Assembly: GCF_026914185.1 (NCBI RefSeq)
Contig: NC_070573.1
Location: forward strand, 1,488,001-1,552,000
Origin: Puccinia triticina
Taxonomy: Eukaryota; Basidiomycota; Pucciniomycetes; Pucciniales; Pucciniaceae
Direction: 5' to 3'
Length of the DNA: 64,000 nucleotides
Position 1 is the stretch's first letter; every line of letters starts with the position of its first letter. The notes beneath the pieces were generated by a model. That model had not been told where the DNA came from. It was given only the letters and a program-made list of their open reading frames with translations, and searched no databases. A program made the position numbers and the translations under genes. Below are positions 39,470 to 55,200 of the stretch, piece by piece.

Positions 39470-40445
39470 TACTCATCCTAGGCCTCAAGATACCATCAAA
39501 TGGACCCCAGAAATGGATTCTACGGCCAATTTCACCCCTAGTCACCACTGGAAGTACCCCTGGACCCCCTCTAGTGTGGAAGTTACCCCTCATGGACACC
39601 TATCACACGGCCAGCCCCAGTAACCCAGCTGTCACCGGCCTCAACCCAAGTTTCACAGTAGTACACTTATACACATCACAGGATACAAACATACATCTCC
39701 CTGTCAGGCTACACTCATTACATATTAACTACATACACTCCTTTATATACATAGTATGACATCATTTACACTGTTTCTGCAGCCTCAGACTTTGTGTATA
39801 CACTAATTCCCCCTGTATGACAGCTCATGCAGTCTACTGTCACCTCATGCATGCGTTAGAATGTTCTTTTGTGTATTCTGACATCATGTATGCACCCCTG
39901 GCATGTTTAGAATGTTCTGTTGTATATTCTGACACCATTCATGCGCTCCTGAGGGGTTATGACATCATTTGTATCTACTCCCACCAGCTAAAATCCCTCA
40001 CCCTGTTGTCTAGATTAGCTGAAACCCTAACCCACAAGCCCCTTTGGGGCTCCACTTTTGTCTATAAAAGGAGCTCTCTCCACCCCCAGTGGTCTGCTCC
40101 CCAGTTCCTCCCCCAGAACTCACAAGTCACCCAACACTCATCCACACTCAAATCCTAAAACCCTTATAACAACAAATCAACCCTTATAACAAAGTAATTC
40201 AACCCTTATAACAATTAAAACACTTACACGTTGCCGGTCAAACAGATTTCATCTGGAACAGACCAGACCTATCACTTAATAAAACTTGCCAAGCTGAGCT
40301 TGGTGGGTCTTGTTGACTGATAACAGAAGGGCAGAGCTTGCAACTCCACCATACCCTTCACCATTCAGCAAAAGGGTTTCATTACCACTTTTGAGTCTTA
40401 CACCGGTTTGTCAGGATTATTTTCCCTGCACCGTTTCCCTGAGCT
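39470..40445 (+). mobile_element. LTR-like repeat, family L, plus orientation
   Basis: Order of blocks: CCTCAAGATACC..., TTTCACCCCTAGTCACC, a TATA box CTATAAAAGG (about 40063), leader, repeated CCCTTATAACAA words, AATAAAACTTGCCAAGC with a polyadenylation-like AATAAA (about 40280), then ATTCAGCAAAAGGG and TTTTGAG...TTACACCGGT. The 43.39-44.59 kb copy has the same order. This resembles a solo LTR with its own promoter and poly(A) signal. Ends approximate. Confidence 0.55.
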
Positions 40446-43389: not shown

Positions 43390-44592
43390 TCTAAACGCCT
43401 CAAGATACAGACAGATGGAATCTAAGGCCAAAATAACCCTTAGTCACCCACTGAAACCACCCTCATATCTCTACTGGATCAGAATATACACAAATAAACA
43501 CCTTTCACACACCAGTCCAGCACATTTCACATAGGAGTTCACACACAACTCATCTCTAGGATACTGTGCATAGGATATTGAATATTTCATATTGAATTAC
43601 TTTGTTTCTTTTATTTTCTTCCTTTTGTTATACTCAACCACAAGTTGGCTGCTGTTTTCACATTGCATATATATGATACTCATGTAACCCCCTAGAAGTT
43701 TCTAAGTTCACTATATAAGGAGGCCTCTGCCTGCCAGTTTTTTTCTTCCTTATCCCATCAGGGGACAATCCCCCTCAGATGCTCATGCCATCTGGCTCCC
43801 ATCATCTATCTACTCACCTGTCACAGTTACGTATTACACATACATATCACAGTTACTTTGTAAGCTCTCAAATGAGGAGAGCTTCACTAGGCAAGGGTCG
43901 AGGGTCAAGGATGAGGGTACAAGGACGAGGGCGAGGGCACGTGGCACGGAACAGCCTCCAGAACCTCTAGCTCGGGGGGAGTCTTAGTACTTCCCTCTAT
44001 ATACAACTTTTGGAGAAGGGGGGAAGAAAAGGGGAAAAGGAGGAGTTTGCTCACCAAGCTCGGGGGGGTCTCAGTACTTCCCTGCCAAGCTAGGAGGGGC
44101 GGGGCTGAGGAGACTAAGTAGGGTGCTTGGTGTTGGTCCGTGATACTCCTGTGATACTTCCTGTGAGTTCGCGGGAGCCACGGCTCACATACTTGCAATT
44201 CACACTCATAATTGATTTCACAAACCTTTCATAAGCCTCTCAAGGTACTGGGTTCCAATCCTGGTCTAAGCATAGCTTTCAAACGTTGACCCTCTCTTTT
44301 TCACTTCATATACCCTCTGCTCACAGACCTGGGTTCAAGCCCCGTCCAAGTCATCAGCATTTTTTTTGCCCATTTCAGACATCTCATCTGCTCCTTAGAC
44401 ACTCAGAACTCTTCACCAAACAATCCAACTATACTCTTCATCTTTGAACATATCCTCATCACTGAATAAAACTGCCAAGCTTAGCTTGGTGGTCTTGTTT
44501 TCTGATATCCAGAAAGGCAGATTTTTGCACCTCATCCATACCTTTCGCCATTGAGCAAAAGGGTCCCACAACACCTTTTGAGTTTTACACCG
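43390..44592 (+). mobile_element. LTR-like repeat, family L, plus orientation, inside the array
   Basis: Same block order as 39470-40445: CCTCAAGATAC, CCCTTAGTCACCCAC, TATA box CTATATAAGG (about 43711), leader, AATAAAACTGCCAAGC (about 44465), then CATTGAGCAAAAGGG and TTTTGAGTTTTACACCGGT. The ACCGGT array continues directly on both sides, so this copy inserted into the array. It also contains two B-box-like words (near 44250 and 44332). Confidence 0.6.
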
Positions 44593-45130
44593 GTACAAAC
44601 CAATCATCGAGAGCACTCAAGCTGTTCAATGACTGGTCTGACCGGTCATCAAGAGGACATACAACCCCTCAATGAACGGTTAGACCGGTCATCAAGAGGA
44701 CATACAACCTCTTGATGACTGGTCAGACCAGTCATTGAGAGGACTCGAGGCTACATAGTCAAGCCTCTCAATGAACGGTCTGACTGGTCATTGAGTAGAC
44801 TCAACCCTCTCAATGATTGGTTAGACCGTTCATTGAGAGGGTTGAGTCCACTCGATGACAAGTCAGAGCATTCATTGAGAGGACATAAAACCTCTCCATG
44901 ACTGGTACAAACCAGTCATCAAGAGGGATCAACCCTTGTCATGAGTATTTTGTACTGTTTTGTACCAGCCATCGAGTGTGATTCCCCTTGATGACCAGTT
45001 TGTACCGGTCATCAAGTAGACTCAAGCTGGCTGCTCAATGAGCGGTTTGTACCGGTCATCAAAGGTACATAAAAAATTGTAACTGTCATCAAGAGTACAT
45101 GCAAACCTTGATGACCGGTGGTGGGTGTTG
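44593..45130. repeat. ACCGGT palindromic array, block 5 (best preserved)
   Basis: About a dozen units alternating CTCTTGATGACCGGT and ACCGGTCATCAAGAG type arms, with period near 45 bp. Each unit is a near-perfect hairpin. Confidence 0.85.
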
Positions 45131-47469: not shown

Positions 47470-48490
47470 ACAGGGGCCTGAGGACAGGGTGCACGAGGTG
47501 GGGCGAGTGTGGATGGTGTGGAAGGATCTGAATTTCATCAGTGAAAAGAAAGAAGAAGAAAAGACAAAAGGAAAGAAAGAAAAAGAGAAAAGAAGAGAAA
47601 CTCTACCTGAGGACAGTGTGCACGAGGTGGGCAAGTGTGGATGGTGTGGAAAGATGAGGAAAGGTTCCTGCCACACCCGCTGCCTCAGGTAGTCTACAAG
47701 GTGTGTGACATGAGAGGGAAAAACAGGTGACATGGAGAAAGCACAGAGGAAGGATGACAAAGAATGAAAAAGAGAAAGAAAAACACAGGTTTTCTGGCTC
47801 AACAAACCCCTCATGTACATAGACCACCAGCACAAATGCCTCACATGTTCCTATATAAGGAGGGGCTCTCTCTTCCTTTCTGCCCCATCCAATCAAGGAG
47901 ATCATTCCCCCACAAGATTCAAATAAATTGTCACCCTCACACTCTCCGCTAGAAAATGTTGACCGGTACCCGGCACCTGTGAGCGGGTACCACCCGCACC
48001 CGCCCCACACCTGCCAGGTGGTGCTGGATGTGGTGCCGGTGCCCGTTTTTTGGCAAAAAGCGGTGCGGTACCCAGGTACCGCCCCCAAGTACCGCCCATC
48101 CCTGGTCGGGGGACCGGGTAGCCCAGCCCAGGGCCACCTTTGGCTGGCCATCAAAAGTGCGTTAAGAACCAAAAAAAGCCTCTCAATTGTTGATTTATTC
48201 ACTCAGGTTCTTTTTCAGTTCATGTGCTTTATACATTTCATTTCTATTTCACCAACATGTCACAAGTTGTATGTAGCATACCTGAGACAGCAGTAGTGGA
48301 AGGCCCCTTTCCTCATCCTTCCACCAACCTCAGTCACTCACCTCACCTCTTTCCTGCTGTTCTCAGGTATGTATTTCTTTCTCATTTCTCTTTCATTTTT
48401 TTGTCCATTTGCAATGAACAATCCTTCCACCAACCTCAGTCACTCACCTCACCTCGTGCCTGCTGTTCTCAGTCCCTGTCCATCTCATCA
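47470..48490. other. mixed repeat DNA, possible fragment of family L
   Basis: A block of about 50 bp (GAGGACAG.GTGCACGAGGTGG) is duplicated at 47478 and 47608. CTATATAAGGAGGGGCTC near 47852 resembles the TATA region of the family L repeats. 47.95-48.11 kb has GGTACC-type palindromes. No gene supported. Confidence 0.4.
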
Positions 48491-48740
48491 TCAATGGCCG
48501 TTCATTTGGCCATTGAGAGCAGCTCAGATGGCCACTGATACAGAAGGCCATTGTGAGAGGTGTATATACTTCTCTCAACAACCGGTCAAAGCCGGTTGTT
48601 GAGAGGAGTAACTTGCTAGAGAGTACATGCTCCTCTCTAGCTGGTTGCCAAGAGGAAATGTTTACTCCTCTCAATGACCAGCTAGAGAGGAGTAATGCAC
48701 TCCCCTCTAGCTGGTTGTCAAGAGGAGTACATGCATACTC
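48491..48740. repeat. ACCGGT/CTAGCTGG palindromic array, block 6
   Basis: Units with AACCGGT..ACCGGTTGTTGAGAGG and CTCCTCTCTAGCTGG / CCAGCTAGAGAGGAG. The last unit is cut by the large TIR element and continues after it at 54231. Confidence 0.75.
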
Positions 48741-48747
48741 CTCTATA
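48741..48747 (+). repeat. target site duplication, left (CTCTATA)
   Basis: Seven bases identical to 54224-54230, directly outside the terminal inverted repeat. Confidence 0.88.
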
Positions 48748-49099
48748 CAACACCCCGACTATTACGCTAAATTACATTAGCGGCGCTAATTCCGTAGCGT
48801 AGCAAACCATTGCTAAATAAAATGGTGGTTAGCGTTAGCGGTAGCACAAACACTATGAAAAAAAATCAAGAAACTGGTGTCAGTTGACATGCAGGAAACT
48901 GGAGTTCAGTCCCCCTTGAAACAAGCCTGATACAAAACAAATCCCAGGGTGGTGCAACCTGGAATATTTGGAAGTTACTCAACAGCCCAGGCTAAGCAGT
49001 ATTTTAAGACTCTACTTAGCCACACCAGCTGCACCTTAACTTAGTGCACTCACTTTTGAGTTGCTCAGCTGGCAAGGCAGTAGCACCTAGGTACATGTC

Positions 49100-49985
49100 A
49101 GGACCTTTTTCAAGCAGGAGGAATCCCCCCAGCCAACCTACTAGGCAAAATCCACCCATGTTGACCAAGAGGGATCCCTCCTGACTGCTTCATACAGTAC
49201 TTGACTCAGAGGGATCCCTCCTGTCCAACAAAGACATAGGATAGTCGACTGGGAGGGATTCCTCCCAGTCAACTAATACATGGAAAAGTTGTCCGGGAGG
49301 CATCCCTCCCGGTTGACTGATAAATAGAATAGTCAACCGGAAGATATCCCTCCCAGTCAACTGCTTCATACAATAGGTGACTGGGAGGGATCCCTCCCAG
49401 TCAACTAATACATAGAACAGTTGACCGGGAGGGATGCCTCCCGGAGGAATGTATCAGTCGTCCAGGAGGCATCCCTCCAGGTCAACTATTGTATGAACCT
49501 GTCGTCCGGGAGGGATCCCTCCCGGAAGACTGATACATAGAACAGCCGTCCAGGAGGGATCCCTCCCGTTTGACTGATATAGGGAATATTTGTCCGGGAG
49601 GCATCCCTCCCGGTCGAGAGGTTCATACAATAGTTGACCGGGAGGGATCCCTCCCGGTTGACTGATACATTTATCAGTCCTCCGGGAGGGATACCTCCCG
49701 GACGACTGCTCCATACAACAGTTGTCCAGAAGGGATCCCTCCCGGACAACTGTTCTATGAATCAGTTGTCCGGGAGGGATCCCTTCCGGACAACAGGTTC
49801 ATACAATAGTCGACCGGGAGGGATCCCTCCCGGACAACTATTGTATGAACCTCTCGACCGGGAGGGGTGCCTCCCGGACAAATATTCCCTATATCAGTCG
49901 AACAGGAGGGATCCCTCCCGGACGACTGTTCTATGTATCAGTTGTCCGGGAGGGATCCCTCCGGGTGGAATGCTCCATACAACCA
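49100..49985. repeat. GGGAGGGATCCCTCCC hairpin array, left
   Basis: About 20 units at a 40-50 bp period. Each centres on GGGAGGGATCCCTCCC (a BamHI-site palindrome) extended to CCGGGAGGG..CCCTCCCGG with GTTGAC or GTCGTC arms. Confidence 0.9.
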
Positions 49986-50259
49986 CCAGGAAAAAAAAGT
50001 AGTCAGTTGATGACAACTGACATAACACAGCTCTGGTTTCAGCTCCAAAGCTACTCCATCTGCTAGTTAAGGGCTGGCTGGCACACAGCTCAGTGCCCAT
50101 TTTGGCACAGCTGAAGCCTCTAGCTTGCATTTTTCACAAGCTGCTCCTCAGCTTTGTCCCAGGCACAGCTGCTGCTCAGCCTTGGCCCAGGCCCAGCTGC
50201 CCCTCAGTCTTGGCACAGGAAAAGCCACTGCTCAGCCTTTGCTTGAGCAAGAACGGGTG

Positions 50260-50530
50260 TTGATAAACGCACACCCGTCCCCCGGGGGCACACCCTCGCC
50301 CACGCCCTTCGAAAAGGGCGTGTGGCGCTGGTTGGGTGTAACACACCCTTGAAGGATGTCTCCCGCGCGCGCGGGAACAATCCTTCAAGGGGGGAATATG
50401 CGGACCGGTCAGGTGGACCGCACGCCCTTTATCAAGGGTGTGCGAGTCGAAGGGCATGCACGCCGCTGTATGGGCGTGCGAGGGCGTGCACGCCCCCACA
50501 TGGGCGTTCACGGGCGTGCACCATGGCTCG
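50260..50530. repeat. GC-rich inverted block (CGTGGGCGTG type), left
   Basis: Words such as CACGCCC, GGGCGTG and CCCCCGGGGG. Mirrors 51785-51900, where the same words run inverted. Confidence 0.7.
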
Positions 50531-51785
50531 TTGGGAGCCCCTCGGCGGGCAGGTGCAAGTATACCTGCTCGCCGAGAGCCCCTCGGCGGGCAGGTACAGA
50601 TCCCACCTCGCCGAGAGCCTCTCGGAGAGCAGGTATACATGCACCTGCTCGCCGAGAGCCTTGCCTGCTCGCCGAGAAGAATAACTCTCGGCGAGCAGGT
50701 ATACAAACACCTGCCCGCCCCCCTCGGCGGGTAGGTGTATGTATCCCTGCTCGCCGAGAAGGATAACTCTCGGCGAGCAGGTGCATGTATACCTGCTCAC
50801 CGAGAGCCCCTCGGCGGGCAGGTGCATGTATACCTGCTCGCCGAGAGAAATCCTCGGCGAGCAGGCATACAGATCCCACCTCGCCGAGAGCCTCTCGGCG
50901 AGCAGGTATACATACACCTGCCCGCCGAGCCTGCTCACCGAGAGCCCCTCGGCGGGCAGGTGCATTTATACCTCCTCGGCGAGCAGGCATACATATCCCA
51001 CCTCGCCAAGAGCCTCTCGGCGAGCAGGTATACTTGCACCTGCCCGACGAGGGGCTCTTGGCGAGCGGGCTCGGCGGGAGGTGCATGTATACCTGCTCGC
51101 CGAGAGAAATCCATGGCGAGCAGGCATACACCTCTCGGCGAGCAGGCATACATATCCCCGCTCGCCGAGAGCCTTGCCTGCTCGCCGAGAAGGATAACTC
51201 TCGGCGAGCAGGTATACAAACACTTGCCCGGCGAGCCTGCTCGCCAAGAGCCCCTCGGCGGGCAGGTTCAAGTATACCTGCTCCCGAGAGGCCCTCGGCG
51301 AGGTGGGATCTGTATGCCTGCTCGCCGAGGATTCCTCTCGGCGAGCAGGTATAAATGCACCTGCCCGCCGAGGGGCTCTCGGTGAGCAGGCTTGGTGGGC
51401 AGGTGTATGTATACCTTCTCGCCGAGAGGCTCTCGGCGAGGTGGGATCTGTATGCCTGCTCGCCGATAATTTCTCTCGGCGAGCAGGTATACATGCACCT
51501 GCCCGCCGAGGGGCTCTCGGTGAGCAGGTATACATGCCCTGCTCGCCGAGAGTTATCCTTCTCGCGAGCAGGCAAGGCTCTCGGCGAGGTGGGATCTGTA
51601 CCTGCCCGCCGAGGGGCTCTAGGTGAGCAGGCTTGGCGGGCAGGTGTTTGTATACTTGCTCGCCGAGAGTTATCCTTCTCGGCGAGCAGGGATACATACA
51701 CCTACCCGCCGAGGGGCTCTCGGCGAGCAGGTATATGTATGTACATGCACCTGCCCACCGAGGGGCTCTCGGCGAGCAGGCACGG
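50530..51785. repeat. CTCGGCGAG hairpin array, centre of the element
   Basis: Over twenty units, period about 50-60 bp, of CTCGGCGAGCAGGTATAC and CACCTGCCCGCCGAGGGGC, alternating orientation so adjacent units pair. Open on both strands and all frames in many places, a property of the repeat and not coding evidence. Confidence 0.9.
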
Positions 51786-51922
51786 TGCACGCTTGTCACG
51801 CCTATGTGGGGGCGTGCACGCCCTCGCACGCCCTTGATAAAGCTTTTCAAAGGGGGTGGGCGTGGGCGTGCCCCCGGGGGACGGGTGTGCATTTATCAAT
51901 GCCCGTTCTTGCTCAGGCAAAG

Positions 51923-52230
51923 GCTGAGCAGCAGCTGGGCCTGGGCCAAGGCTGAGCAGCAGCTGGGCCTGGGCCAAGGCTGAGCAGCAGCTGGGCCTGG
52001 GCCAAGGCTGAGCAGCAGCTGGGCCTGGGCCAAGGCTGAGCAGCAGCTGGGCCTGGGCCAAGGCTGAGCAGCAGCTGGGCCTGGGCCAAGGCTGAGCAGC
52101 AGCTGGGCCTGGGCCAAGGCTGAGCAGCAGCTGGGCCTGGGCCAAGGCTGAGCAGCAGCTGGGCCTGGGCCAAGGCTGAGCAGCAGCTGGGCCTGGGCCA
52201 AGGCTGAGCAGCAGCTGGGCCTGGGACAAA
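51923..52230 (+). repeat. 28-bp tandem repeat, 11 copies
   Basis: Unit GCTGAGCAGCAGCTGGGCCT plus GGGCCAAG. Ten near-perfect units and a diverged eleventh fill 308 bp exactly. A degenerate inverted relative lies at 50130-50245. Confidence 0.97.
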
Positions 52231-52334
52231 GCTGAGGATCAGCTTGTGAAAATTGCACTAGAGGCTGGATAGCCAGCTGGAGCAGGTGTCATGTCAGTTG
52301 TCATCTAGTGACTACTGATTTTTCCTGGTGAACA

Positions 52335-52800
52335 GTTGTCCGGAAGGGATCCCTCCCGGATGACTGTTCTATGTATCAGTCGACTGGGAGGGATGCCTCC
52401 CGGAGGACTGATATATGTATTAGTCTTCCGGGAGGCATCCCTCCTGGTCAACTATTGTATGAACCTGTTTTCCAGGAGGGATCCCTCCCGGATAACTGAT
52501 ACATACAACAGTCGTCCGGGAGGGATCCCTTCCGGACGACTGTTGTATGGAGCAGTTGTCCGGGAGGTATCCCTCCCGGAGGACTGATAAATGTATCAGT
52601 TGACCGGGAGGGATCCCTCCCGGTTGACTATTGTATGAACCTCTTGACTGGGAGGGATGCCTCCTTGACAAATATTCCCTATATCAGTCAAACGGGAGGG
52701 ATCCCTCCCAGACGGCTGTTCTATGTATCAGTCGTCCGGAAGGGGTCCCTCGCGGACGACAGGTTCATACAATAGTTGACCGGGAGGCATCCCTCCCAGC
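52335..52800. repeat. GGGAGGGATCCCTCCC hairpin array, right
   Basis: About ten units of the same type as 49100-49985, in the mirrored position within the large element. Confidence 0.88.
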
Positions 52801-53559
52801 CGACTGATAGGTTGACATGGGCTGGTCAACATGAGTGCCTTTTCATCTAGCCTGGTCGACCCCGCCTAGGACGGGAGGGATTACTCCCAGTTGACATGGG
52901 CATATATTCTGGTTGACCTGGTGGAATTCCCCCCAAGGGCTTGTATTATGTGTATGGAAATACATCCCCTTGTTGATGACCAATGAGCACCAGTACGGCT
53001 CAGGAGCTTGGCACATGCAAATACTGAGCTAGCTGAGCTGCCCTGTGATTAATCATGGAATGAAAGTGGATGTCCTGGAAGTCTTGCCCTGGATTGCACA
53101 TGTCAACTGACGGCGCTTTCTCAAGTTTTTTTCACAGTGAAAAATACACTTTTTAGGGGTAGCGCAGCAAAGGTGCCGCTAATCTGTTTACGCCTCCCAT
53201 GTAGCGTAGCTACAATGAGGGCGCTAACACTAAGTTTACATGTAATTTAGCGGTGCAGCGGCTTTCAATTGCTAAAGTACCTGCTACACCACTACATTGA
53301 GTAATTATCAGTGTAGGGGTACTTTAGCGGGGCTTTGACCTGGTTGAAACACACCAGCACCGCTAAAAATGAGCAATCAGTCTTTGCACAAGGAGTACTG
53401 GTGCTTTGCCAAGGAAAATACCCAAGCAATTTTACCCCCATATACAGTAGTATTTGATTCTGCAATCAATCTATGATAATTTGGAGTGGTGTTGAAGTTA
53501 TGGGAGTTTGACGGGCCAAGCGCCCCCCAGCGCTCGCAGAGCTCATATTGTTGGATTTC

Positions 53560-53940
53560 GCGTAATCCGACAGTAAGAGCTCTACAAGCGCTCCTGAGCG
53601 CTCCTGAGCGCCCCCAGCGCTTGTACAGCTACTGTTGCACGAAATCCAACAGTACAGCTCAACAGTAGCACAGTCGTACTGTCGGATTTCACAAAATCCA
53701 ACAGTACAGCTCAACAGTAGCACAGTCGTACTGTCGGATTTCACAAAATCCGACAGTACAACTCAACAGTAGCACAGTCGTACTGTCGGATTACGCGTAA
53801 TCCAACAGTACGAGCTCTGCAAGCGCTGAGTAGGCAAATATTCCCGCGGAGTGCGCACTGCAGTATCTTGTGAAATCTGACAGTAAAACTCAACAGTAGC
53901 ACAGTCGTACTATGAGCTCTGCAAGCACTGAGTAGGCAAA
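53560..53940. repeat. ACTGTCGGATT hairpin array
   Basis: Four to six units, period about 51-54 bp, of GTACTGTCGGATT..AATCCGACAGTAC joined by CTCAACAGTAGCACAGTC. Each unit is a hairpin. This array occurs only in the right half of the element. Confidence 0.88.
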
Positions 53941-54223
53941 TATTACCGCAGAGTGCACACTGCATTAGTCGCTAATTAGCGATCTAACTTAGCTAATTAA
54001 TTGCTGCATTAGCGAATGAGGCGCTAAAAGAAATGGAGCATAGTTTTTTTGCGCTACAAACGCTAAACATTAGGGATTAAATTTGTCTGTTATTCTCCCA
54101 ACTCAGGTTGCAATTGTAACTGTAGCTGAAAGACAACTGCGCTAAATTGCAGCGTAGCTGGCAGACCGCTACGCTAAAAATTTTGCTAAATGGGCTAAAT
54201 GTAGCGTAATATTTGGGGTGTTG

Positions 54224-54230
54224 CTCTATA
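54224..54230 (+). repeat. target site duplication, right (CTCTATA)
   Basis: Matches 48741-48747 exactly. Confidence 0.88.
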
Positions 54231-54495
54231 GCTGGTCGTCAAGAGGATTACATGTTTCTCTTGATGACCAGCTAGAGAGGAGTACATAGATTCTCCTCTC
54301 TAGCTGGTCATCAAGAGGACACTCCTCTGATGGCCCCCTTGACAACCAGTCACACCAGGCATTGAGAGGAGCCGGCAACCTTACCGGCTATCCAAGCATA
54401 CACTGCTCTTGATAGCCGGCACTGACCGGCCATCAAGGGACTGTGTGAATGTCCTCTTGATGACCGGTCTTTGCCGCCCATTAAGAGAGGGGCTT
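54231..54495. repeat. ACCGGT/CTAGCTGG palindromic array, block 7
   Basis: Continuation of block 6: GCTGGTCGTCAAGAGG, CTAGAGAGGAG, GATGACCGGTC and related words. Confidence 0.75.
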
Positions 54496-54544
54496 GGGAG
54501 TGAGTTTTGATGAAAAAACCCCGGCGGGTACCGCTGGTACCCGC

Positions 54545-54630
54545 CAGGCGGTGCCGGGTCCTGAGAACCTTTTGCTGAATGGAGAAGGGGATGATGGAGG
54601 TGCAAACTCTGCCCTTCTGTACTATCAGAT

Positions 54631-54662
<32 letters not shown>

Positions 54663-55200
54663 TTAATGAAGTGATAGGATTGGTTGGCTCAAGATGAGCT
54701 TGTTGATGACACTGAACAAATTGATGTTATTGTTATTCTAGGGGTTGTTATGTATGTAGGTGGTTAAGTATATGTAAGCTTGTAAATGTAAATGTTGGGG
54801 TGACTGTAATTGGTGAGTAATGAACTGCCGGAAGGACAGCTGGGGGGGAAGAGAGCTCCTTATGTAGACAAATGTGAGGGAGTTTAGCTACAGGGGAAGT
54901 TGAATGAGTGAATGTGGTTGGTCAGATCTGTACATGACATGTAGAAGATGCAAACATCTGAATGAGTGACTATGATTGGTCAGAACATGAGGGATTTAAC
55001 GTAGTAATTCTATGATATCACCTGCAGCTGTCAGTTGTAAAAATCCACTAAATTAGAATGTATCTATATACCATGCAGTGTAAATGAGTATGTGTAGCTG
55101 TCCTGCAGCCGTGTTGTGTATGTAAAAGTGAGGTTGTAATAGGAGGTTGTATGTATATGTAGCCTGCAATGTATATGTAGCTTGCAAGTGTAGCATCTAG
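54545..55200 (-). mobile_element. LTR-like repeat, family L, minus orientation, shortened
   Basis: On the minus strand it shares ATTCAGCAAAAGGTTCTCAGG, the AAAACTTGCCAAGCTTACC block and the leader with the other family L copies. It lacks the terminal TTTTGAG-TTTACA part, and the TATA region is weaker. Boundaries approximate. Confidence 0.5.

What the first reader, a model, noticed from the sequence alone, without database searches (positions are those of the whole stretch)
48741..54230. A 5.5-kb non-coding TIR element made almost wholly of nested hairpin satellites
The ends are inverted (CAACACCCC, then TATTACGCTA) and a 7-bp duplication CTCTATA flanks it. The empty site can be read by joining the flanks, because it sits in a palindromic array whose unit it splits. 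Inside, unrelated hairpin satellites are arranged as a rough mirror image. Elements of this size usually either code or are simple deletion derivatives; this is neither. It may be a foldback element that grows by amplifying its own palindromes.
Basis: partly seen in the sequence, partly recalled or inferred. Interest (0 to 1): 0.88.

Follow-up and report, generated by a model that had tools for sequence, protein, structure and literature searches.

The report
Three transposons nested in a fourth
What looked like one strange 5.5-kb hairpin-rich transposon in a rust fungus genome is a stack of ordinary mobile elements, each inserted into the one before it.

Summary
The single-element reading does not. 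The stretch is three non-coding DNA transposons nested inside a fourth repeat. L1 (48748-54223) is hAT7-like: 7-bp duplications are exact in 8 of 11 and within one mismatch in 10 of 11 copies (mispaired control 2 and 4 of 110), and a 4.4-kb copy with the same ends carries a hAT dimerisation domain. L2 (48851-53139, TSD AAA) and L3 (49984-52330, TSD AAC) have CACTA/EnSpm-like CAC..GTG ends and 3-bp duplications (3 of 3 and 10 of 10 copies read). Uninterrupted host copies align straight across all three insertion points. The mirror image arises because each insertion splits its host; L3 splits one continuous 44-bp hairpin array of L2. The L3-type end occurs 1,186 times in the genome, and sampled copies are nearly identical: a recent expansion. 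Array lengths do differ between L3 copies, so some array growth or loss is real. New members of known kinds.

The parts
47950..54571 (+). L0: palindromic-array repeat that hosts the stack; left end near 47950, right end apparently truncated near 54571 (limits approximate)
   Evidence: Related loci L073-L077 align on both sides of the insertion
48741..48747 (+). L1 target duplication CTCTATA, left copy
48748..54223 (+). L1: hAT7-like non-autonomous element, about 1.18 kb of its own sequence
   Evidence: Ends shared with other copies, 7-bp TSDs; hAT domain in L054
48851..53139 (+). L2: CACTA/EnSpm-like element inserted in L1; ends CACTATG..CACAGTG, TSD AAA at 48848-48850 and 53140-53142
   Evidence: 13 of 13 L1-family copies printed lack it at this site; other L2 copies
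49183..49983 (+). 44-bp hairpin array of L2, left part
49984..52330 (+). L3: CACTA/EnSpm-like element inserted in the 44-bp array of L2; ends CACCAGG..CCTGGTG, TSD AAC at 49981-49983 and 52331-52333
50139..50239 (+). 28-bp subterminal repeats of L3, left (not hairpin-forming as tested)
50535..51780 (+). core hairpin repeats of L3, period about 41 bp (TRF rows to 51550, on to 51780 by eye)
51916..52244 (+). 28-bp subterminal repeats of L3, right (11.8 units); number varies between copies
52331..52806 (+). 44-bp hairpin array of L2, right part, split off by L3
53638..53817 (+). 52-bp hairpin array of L1
54224..54230 (+). L1 target duplication CTCTATA, right copy

Best explanation
Serial insertion of non-autonomous cut-and-paste transposons. 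A hAT7-like element (L1) landed in a palindromic-array repeat (L0) and duplicated 7 bp; a CACTA/EnSpm-like element (L2) landed in the left arm of L1 and duplicated 3 bp; a second CACTA/EnSpm-like family (L3), recently expanded, landed in the hairpin array of L2 and duplicated 3 bp. Shown: ends, duplications, other copies and uninterrupted host copies for all three insertions. Inferred: the time order (from the nesting), movement by transposases encoded elsewhere in the genome, and that terminal and subterminal repeats are transposase docking sites as in known hAT and CACTA elements.
For: TSDs with mispaired controls: L1 8 of 11 exact against 2 of 110, L3-type ends 13 of 13 against 2 of 156; L2 AAA, TGT, ACA in 3 of 3 copies read. 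Empty sites: L0 copies, L1-family copies 13 of 13 printed and five of five aligned across the join at 93.5-95.5%, L2 copies L082 (90% over 1552 bp) and L083 (82.5% over 1971 bp, 51 gaps) across the L3 point. hAT domain PF05699 E 2.8e-8 in the 4.4-kb copy with L1 ends. L3-type end pattern 600 forward and 586 reverse, control 0. CACTA transposase matches abundant, 150 scored and all over cut-off.
Against: L010 shows no 7-bp match. No transposase gene was found between matching ends for L2 or L3: two stretches of long L2 copies gave a copia polyprotein and nothing, one CACTA transposase family had no such ends in the stretch held. The AAA duplication of L2 lies in a run of A, though the count of A fits a gain of three. 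The class of L0 is open.
Confidence: 0.95

Rival explanations
1. One foldback-type element that grew by amplifying its own palindromes.
For: Mirror order of hairpin arrays; array length varies between L3 copies, in 7 of 9 by a multiple of 28 bp (zero included).
Against: Each block occurs elsewhere without the others, with its own ends and duplications; uninterrupted hosts exist for every layer. In L082 the 44-bp array is one continuous run.
Confidence: 0.02
2. The stack is nested insertions, but the insertions prefer palindromic arrays as targets.
For: Here L1 lies in the L0 array and L3 in the L2 array.
Against: On the one flank examined, 1 of 9 other L3 copies and 1 of 11 L1-family loci have a tandem array within 60 bp (for L1 the script took either the left or the right flank). 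L2 sits outside an array.
Confidence: 0.05

Closest known systems
hAT7, hAT elements with 7-bp duplications in rust fungi (PMC12730594; passages and section 12 read)
   Same: 7-bp duplication, hAT transposase domain in a longer copy with the same ends, rust host
   Different: L1 is non-coding, carries a 52-bp hairpin array, and no tree with the published families was made
CACTA/EnSpm (PMC8978399, passages and Background read; rust EnSpm in PMC12730594, passages)
   Same: CAC..GTG ends, 3-bp duplications, repeats next to the ends
   Different: L2 and L3 are non-coding with long palindromic arrays; L3 begins CACCA, not CACTA; no coding copy with these ends was found
Foldback elements (recalled)
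   Same: hairpin-rich, mirror-like
   Different: The mirrored blocks belong to different elements or are two parts of one split array

Membership tests
hAT7 (L1) | 7-bp target duplication | tested here: met
   8 of 11 exact, 10 of 11 within one mismatch, control 2 and 4 of 110
hAT7 (L1) | hAT transposase in a relative with the same ends | tested here: met
   PF05699 E 2.8e-8 in L054, broken frames
hAT7 (L1) | Transposase groups with published hAT7 on a tree | not tested
   The published sequences were not at hand
CACTA/EnSpm (L2, L3) | CAC..GTG ends | tested here: met
   L2 CACTATG..CACAGTG, L3 CACCAGG..CCTGGTG
CACTA/EnSpm (L2, L3) | 3-bp target duplication | tested here: met
   L2 3 of 3 read; L3 10 of 10, with the sister subfamily 13 of 13, control 2 of 156
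CACTA/EnSpm (L2, L3) | Subterminal repeats | tested here: met
   28-bp repeats at both ends of L3 and in the left part of four sister elements; 44-bp array in L2 copies
CACTA/EnSpm (L2, L3) | Transposase gene in an element with the same ends | tested here: inconclusive
   Transposase_21 abundant in the genome, none linked to these ends in the few stretches read
Foldback element | Long inverted repeats belonging to one element over the whole length | tested here: not met
   Blocks belong to separate elements
TA-duplicating TIR element (L0) | TA duplication and paired inverted ends | tested here: inconclusive
   TA precedes GAGAATG or a variant at all six ends read (five left, one right), but both ends of one copy were read in none

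The most novel reading that the evidence does not exclude
Non-autonomous rust DNA transposons of at least two superfamilies (hAT7 and CACTA/EnSpm), and perhaps a third (L0), have each filled much of their interior with unrelated arrays of palindromes of about 41-52 bp. Such arrays would then be a convergent, selected feature, for example extra transposase docking sites or a structure that helps excision or replication-coupled amplification, rather than passive slippage.
Probability: 0.15. Interest if true: 0.55.

Novelty: new member of a known kind. Interest (0 to 1): 0.3.

Why it matters
It keeps a composite from being entered in repeat libraries as one odd element, and gives ends, duplication lengths and copy evidence for three non-coding transposon families of a rust, one of them recently expanded. 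If the palindromic arrays prove convergent, they would make it testable whether hairpin arrays help non-autonomous elements to move.

Tried and rejected
Single foldback element: rejected by uninterrupted host copies. CTCTATA as mere array sequence: rejected by empty sites with one copy. Coding element: four frames tested, none over a Pfam cut-off. Autonomous L2 in long copies: of several long pairs deduced, two 5-kb stretches were read; one holds a copia polyprotein, the one frame tested of the other matched nothing. Autonomous L3 partner: one transposase family sampled in two near-identical loci, no such ends in the stretches held. Plavaka model: 29 weak matches in the genome, not linked to these ends. 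Array target preference: not supported in a small sample. Species by protein search: closest named are Phakopsora pachyrhizi (67%) and Puccinia striiformis (65% over 86%), so a rust, species not named; the search admits only proteins of 0.55-1.75 times the query length, which may leave out full-length relatives. Paper searches (listings) showed no title on such a stack in rusts; the library is partial.

Full report
What the letters show. The ends, the CTCTATA duplication and the palindromic surroundings are as described. The window lies in a 122.8-Mb assembly of 18 contigs. Three window proteins tested match pescadillo, choline transporter and SYF1 families, and the closest named SYF1 relatives are rust fungi, Phakopsora pachyrhizi at 67% and Puccinia striiformis at 65% over 86%. 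That 18 contigs fit a rust's chromosome number is recalled, not tested.

Layer L1. The left 112 bases match 35 places in the genome, 15 of which (the window included) cover query positions 1-98 or more at 91% or better; the right 134 bases match 11 places, the window included. Both ends were read for ten other copies and the window: the 7-bp flanks match exactly in 8 of 11 and within one mismatch in 10 of 11; L010 fails. Flanks of different copies paired as a control match exactly in 2 and within one mismatch in 4 of 110; by reading, the two exact ones are the two pairings of L012 with L054, which share CTTCAAC. No other length from 5 to 9 gives an exact match. Eight of the 11 copies are 1006-1554 bp long; L054 is 4393, the window 5476 and a C13 copy 9062 bp. 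L054 holds interrupted frames ending in a hAT dimerisation domain (PF05699, E 2.8e-8); another of its frames has a sub-threshold hAT-like match. By eye the C13 copy holds the same transposase fragment, and one of its frames has a reverse transcriptase match below cut-off. hAT elements with 7-bp duplications have been described from rusts as hAT7 (PMC12730594, section 12).

Layer L2. Inside L1, 48851-53139 begins CACTATG and ends CACAGTG with AAA on both sides. Thirteen of 13 L1-family copies looked at have the uninterrupted site or a close variant, and five of five L1 copies tried align across the join at 93.5-95.5%. The left- and right-end queries each give 42 matches from 40 scored candidates, of 372 and 80 candidates; an end pattern with up to three mismatches finds 42 forward and 37 reverse sites, control 0. 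Two uninterrupted copies, L082 and L083, have duplications TGT and ACA by reading. In L082 the 44-bp hairpin repeats run on from about 639 to 1577, so the two mirrored 44-bp blocks in the window are parts of one array. L082 aligns across the L3 point at 90% over 1552 bp; L083 at 82.5% over 1971 bp with 51 gaps.

Layer L3. 49984-52330 begins CACCAGGAAAAA and ends in its inverse, with AAC on both sides. Ten of ten copies (the window as L043 and nine others) start at the same base with different flanks, and all ten have exact 3-bp duplications. Three shorter elements of a sister subfamily with the same end type have them too: 13 of 13, control 2 of 156; a fourth sister stretch, L078, showed no clear right end. 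The end pattern with up to two mismatches occurs 600 times forward and 586 reverse, control 0; that counts both ends and all subfamilies. The 99-base right-end query is identical in 31 of 40 scored places, of 158 candidates. In the lines in view, L042, L047, L048, L049 and L051 are 99.7-99.9% identical to the window over about 2057 bp and L050 98.7% over 2083 bp; the lines of the other three were cut or not in view. Lengths of the nine other copies, deduced from coordinates, are 2123-2521 bp; 7 of 9 differ from the window by a multiple of 28 (one by zero), one by 123 (three times 41) and one by 174. So arrays do change between copies, but by little beside the size of the stack.

Layer L0. The flanking palindromic array belongs to a repeat of its own. 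All five related loci looked at (L073-L077) have an aligned piece spanning the L1 insertion point, at 84-94%; L073 and L075 show one CTCTATA there and L077 a one-base variant, while the site was not printed for L074 and L076. TA precedes the end word at the six ends read; the class is open. The window copy has 310 bp (48184-48493) that do not align to these copies, and seems to lose its right end near 54571, close to where a very common repeat begins.

How it works. Each layer L1-L3 is best read as a non-autonomous cut-and-paste element moved by a transposase made elsewhere. For L1 a relative with transposase remains exists in the genome; for L2 and L3 the superfamily's transposase is abundant (150 matches scored of 179 candidates, all over cut-off), but no copy with matching ends was found in the little that I could read. 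[quoted passage not shown] The apparent mirror image is what nested insertions into array-bearing elements produce.

Limits. Counts of repeats from the genome searches are lower bounds by the tool's own statement. I read only part of the copies, because letters from the genome were capped. Rust genomes are known to be rich in TIR elements, CACTA and hAT among them (PMC12210899, passages), so the stack is expected in kind.

Noticed in passing
L002, L003, L007 (C5, C9, C9): Three L1-type left ends share one flank (TATGTGTGCAAT) and showed no right end in 9.5 kb; probably copied along inside a larger repeat.
   Followed up: partly
L017, L018, L020, L021, L029: Short L1-type left-end pieces with one common flank (GATTTATTAC), another hitch-hiking or chimeric repeat.
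   Followed up: no
L019, L022-L028, L030: A relative with different ends (AAGGAAGCA then ACTACTACGCTAATTACATTAGCGGC) shares the GCTAA-rich arm of L1.
   Followed up: no
window 48184-48493: 310 bp of the window's L0 copy do not align to the related loci; perhaps a further insertion.
   Followed up: no
L052-L053 (C13:5153300-5163000): A 9.06-kb copy with L1 ends holds a hAT fragment and a frame with a sub-threshold reverse transcriptase match: another nest.
   Followed up: partly
L069:1610-4999: An open frame of 1130 aa with copia-type domains (PF07727 and others) lies inside a long L2 copy next to its 44-bp array.
   Followed up: partly
L070 and L071 (C3:8306289, C4:6811258): Two loci around a CACTA transposase are 99.7% identical over 7.5 kb: a recently moved or duplicated family.
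   Followed up: no
L012 and L054: Two L1-family copies have the identical target CTTCAAC; chance or target preference is open.
   Followed up: no
window 40053-40386, 44447-44698, 54406-54876: Similar LTR-like stretches with a TATAAGGAGCTCTC-type motif recur around the stack, the last one inverted.
   Followed up: no
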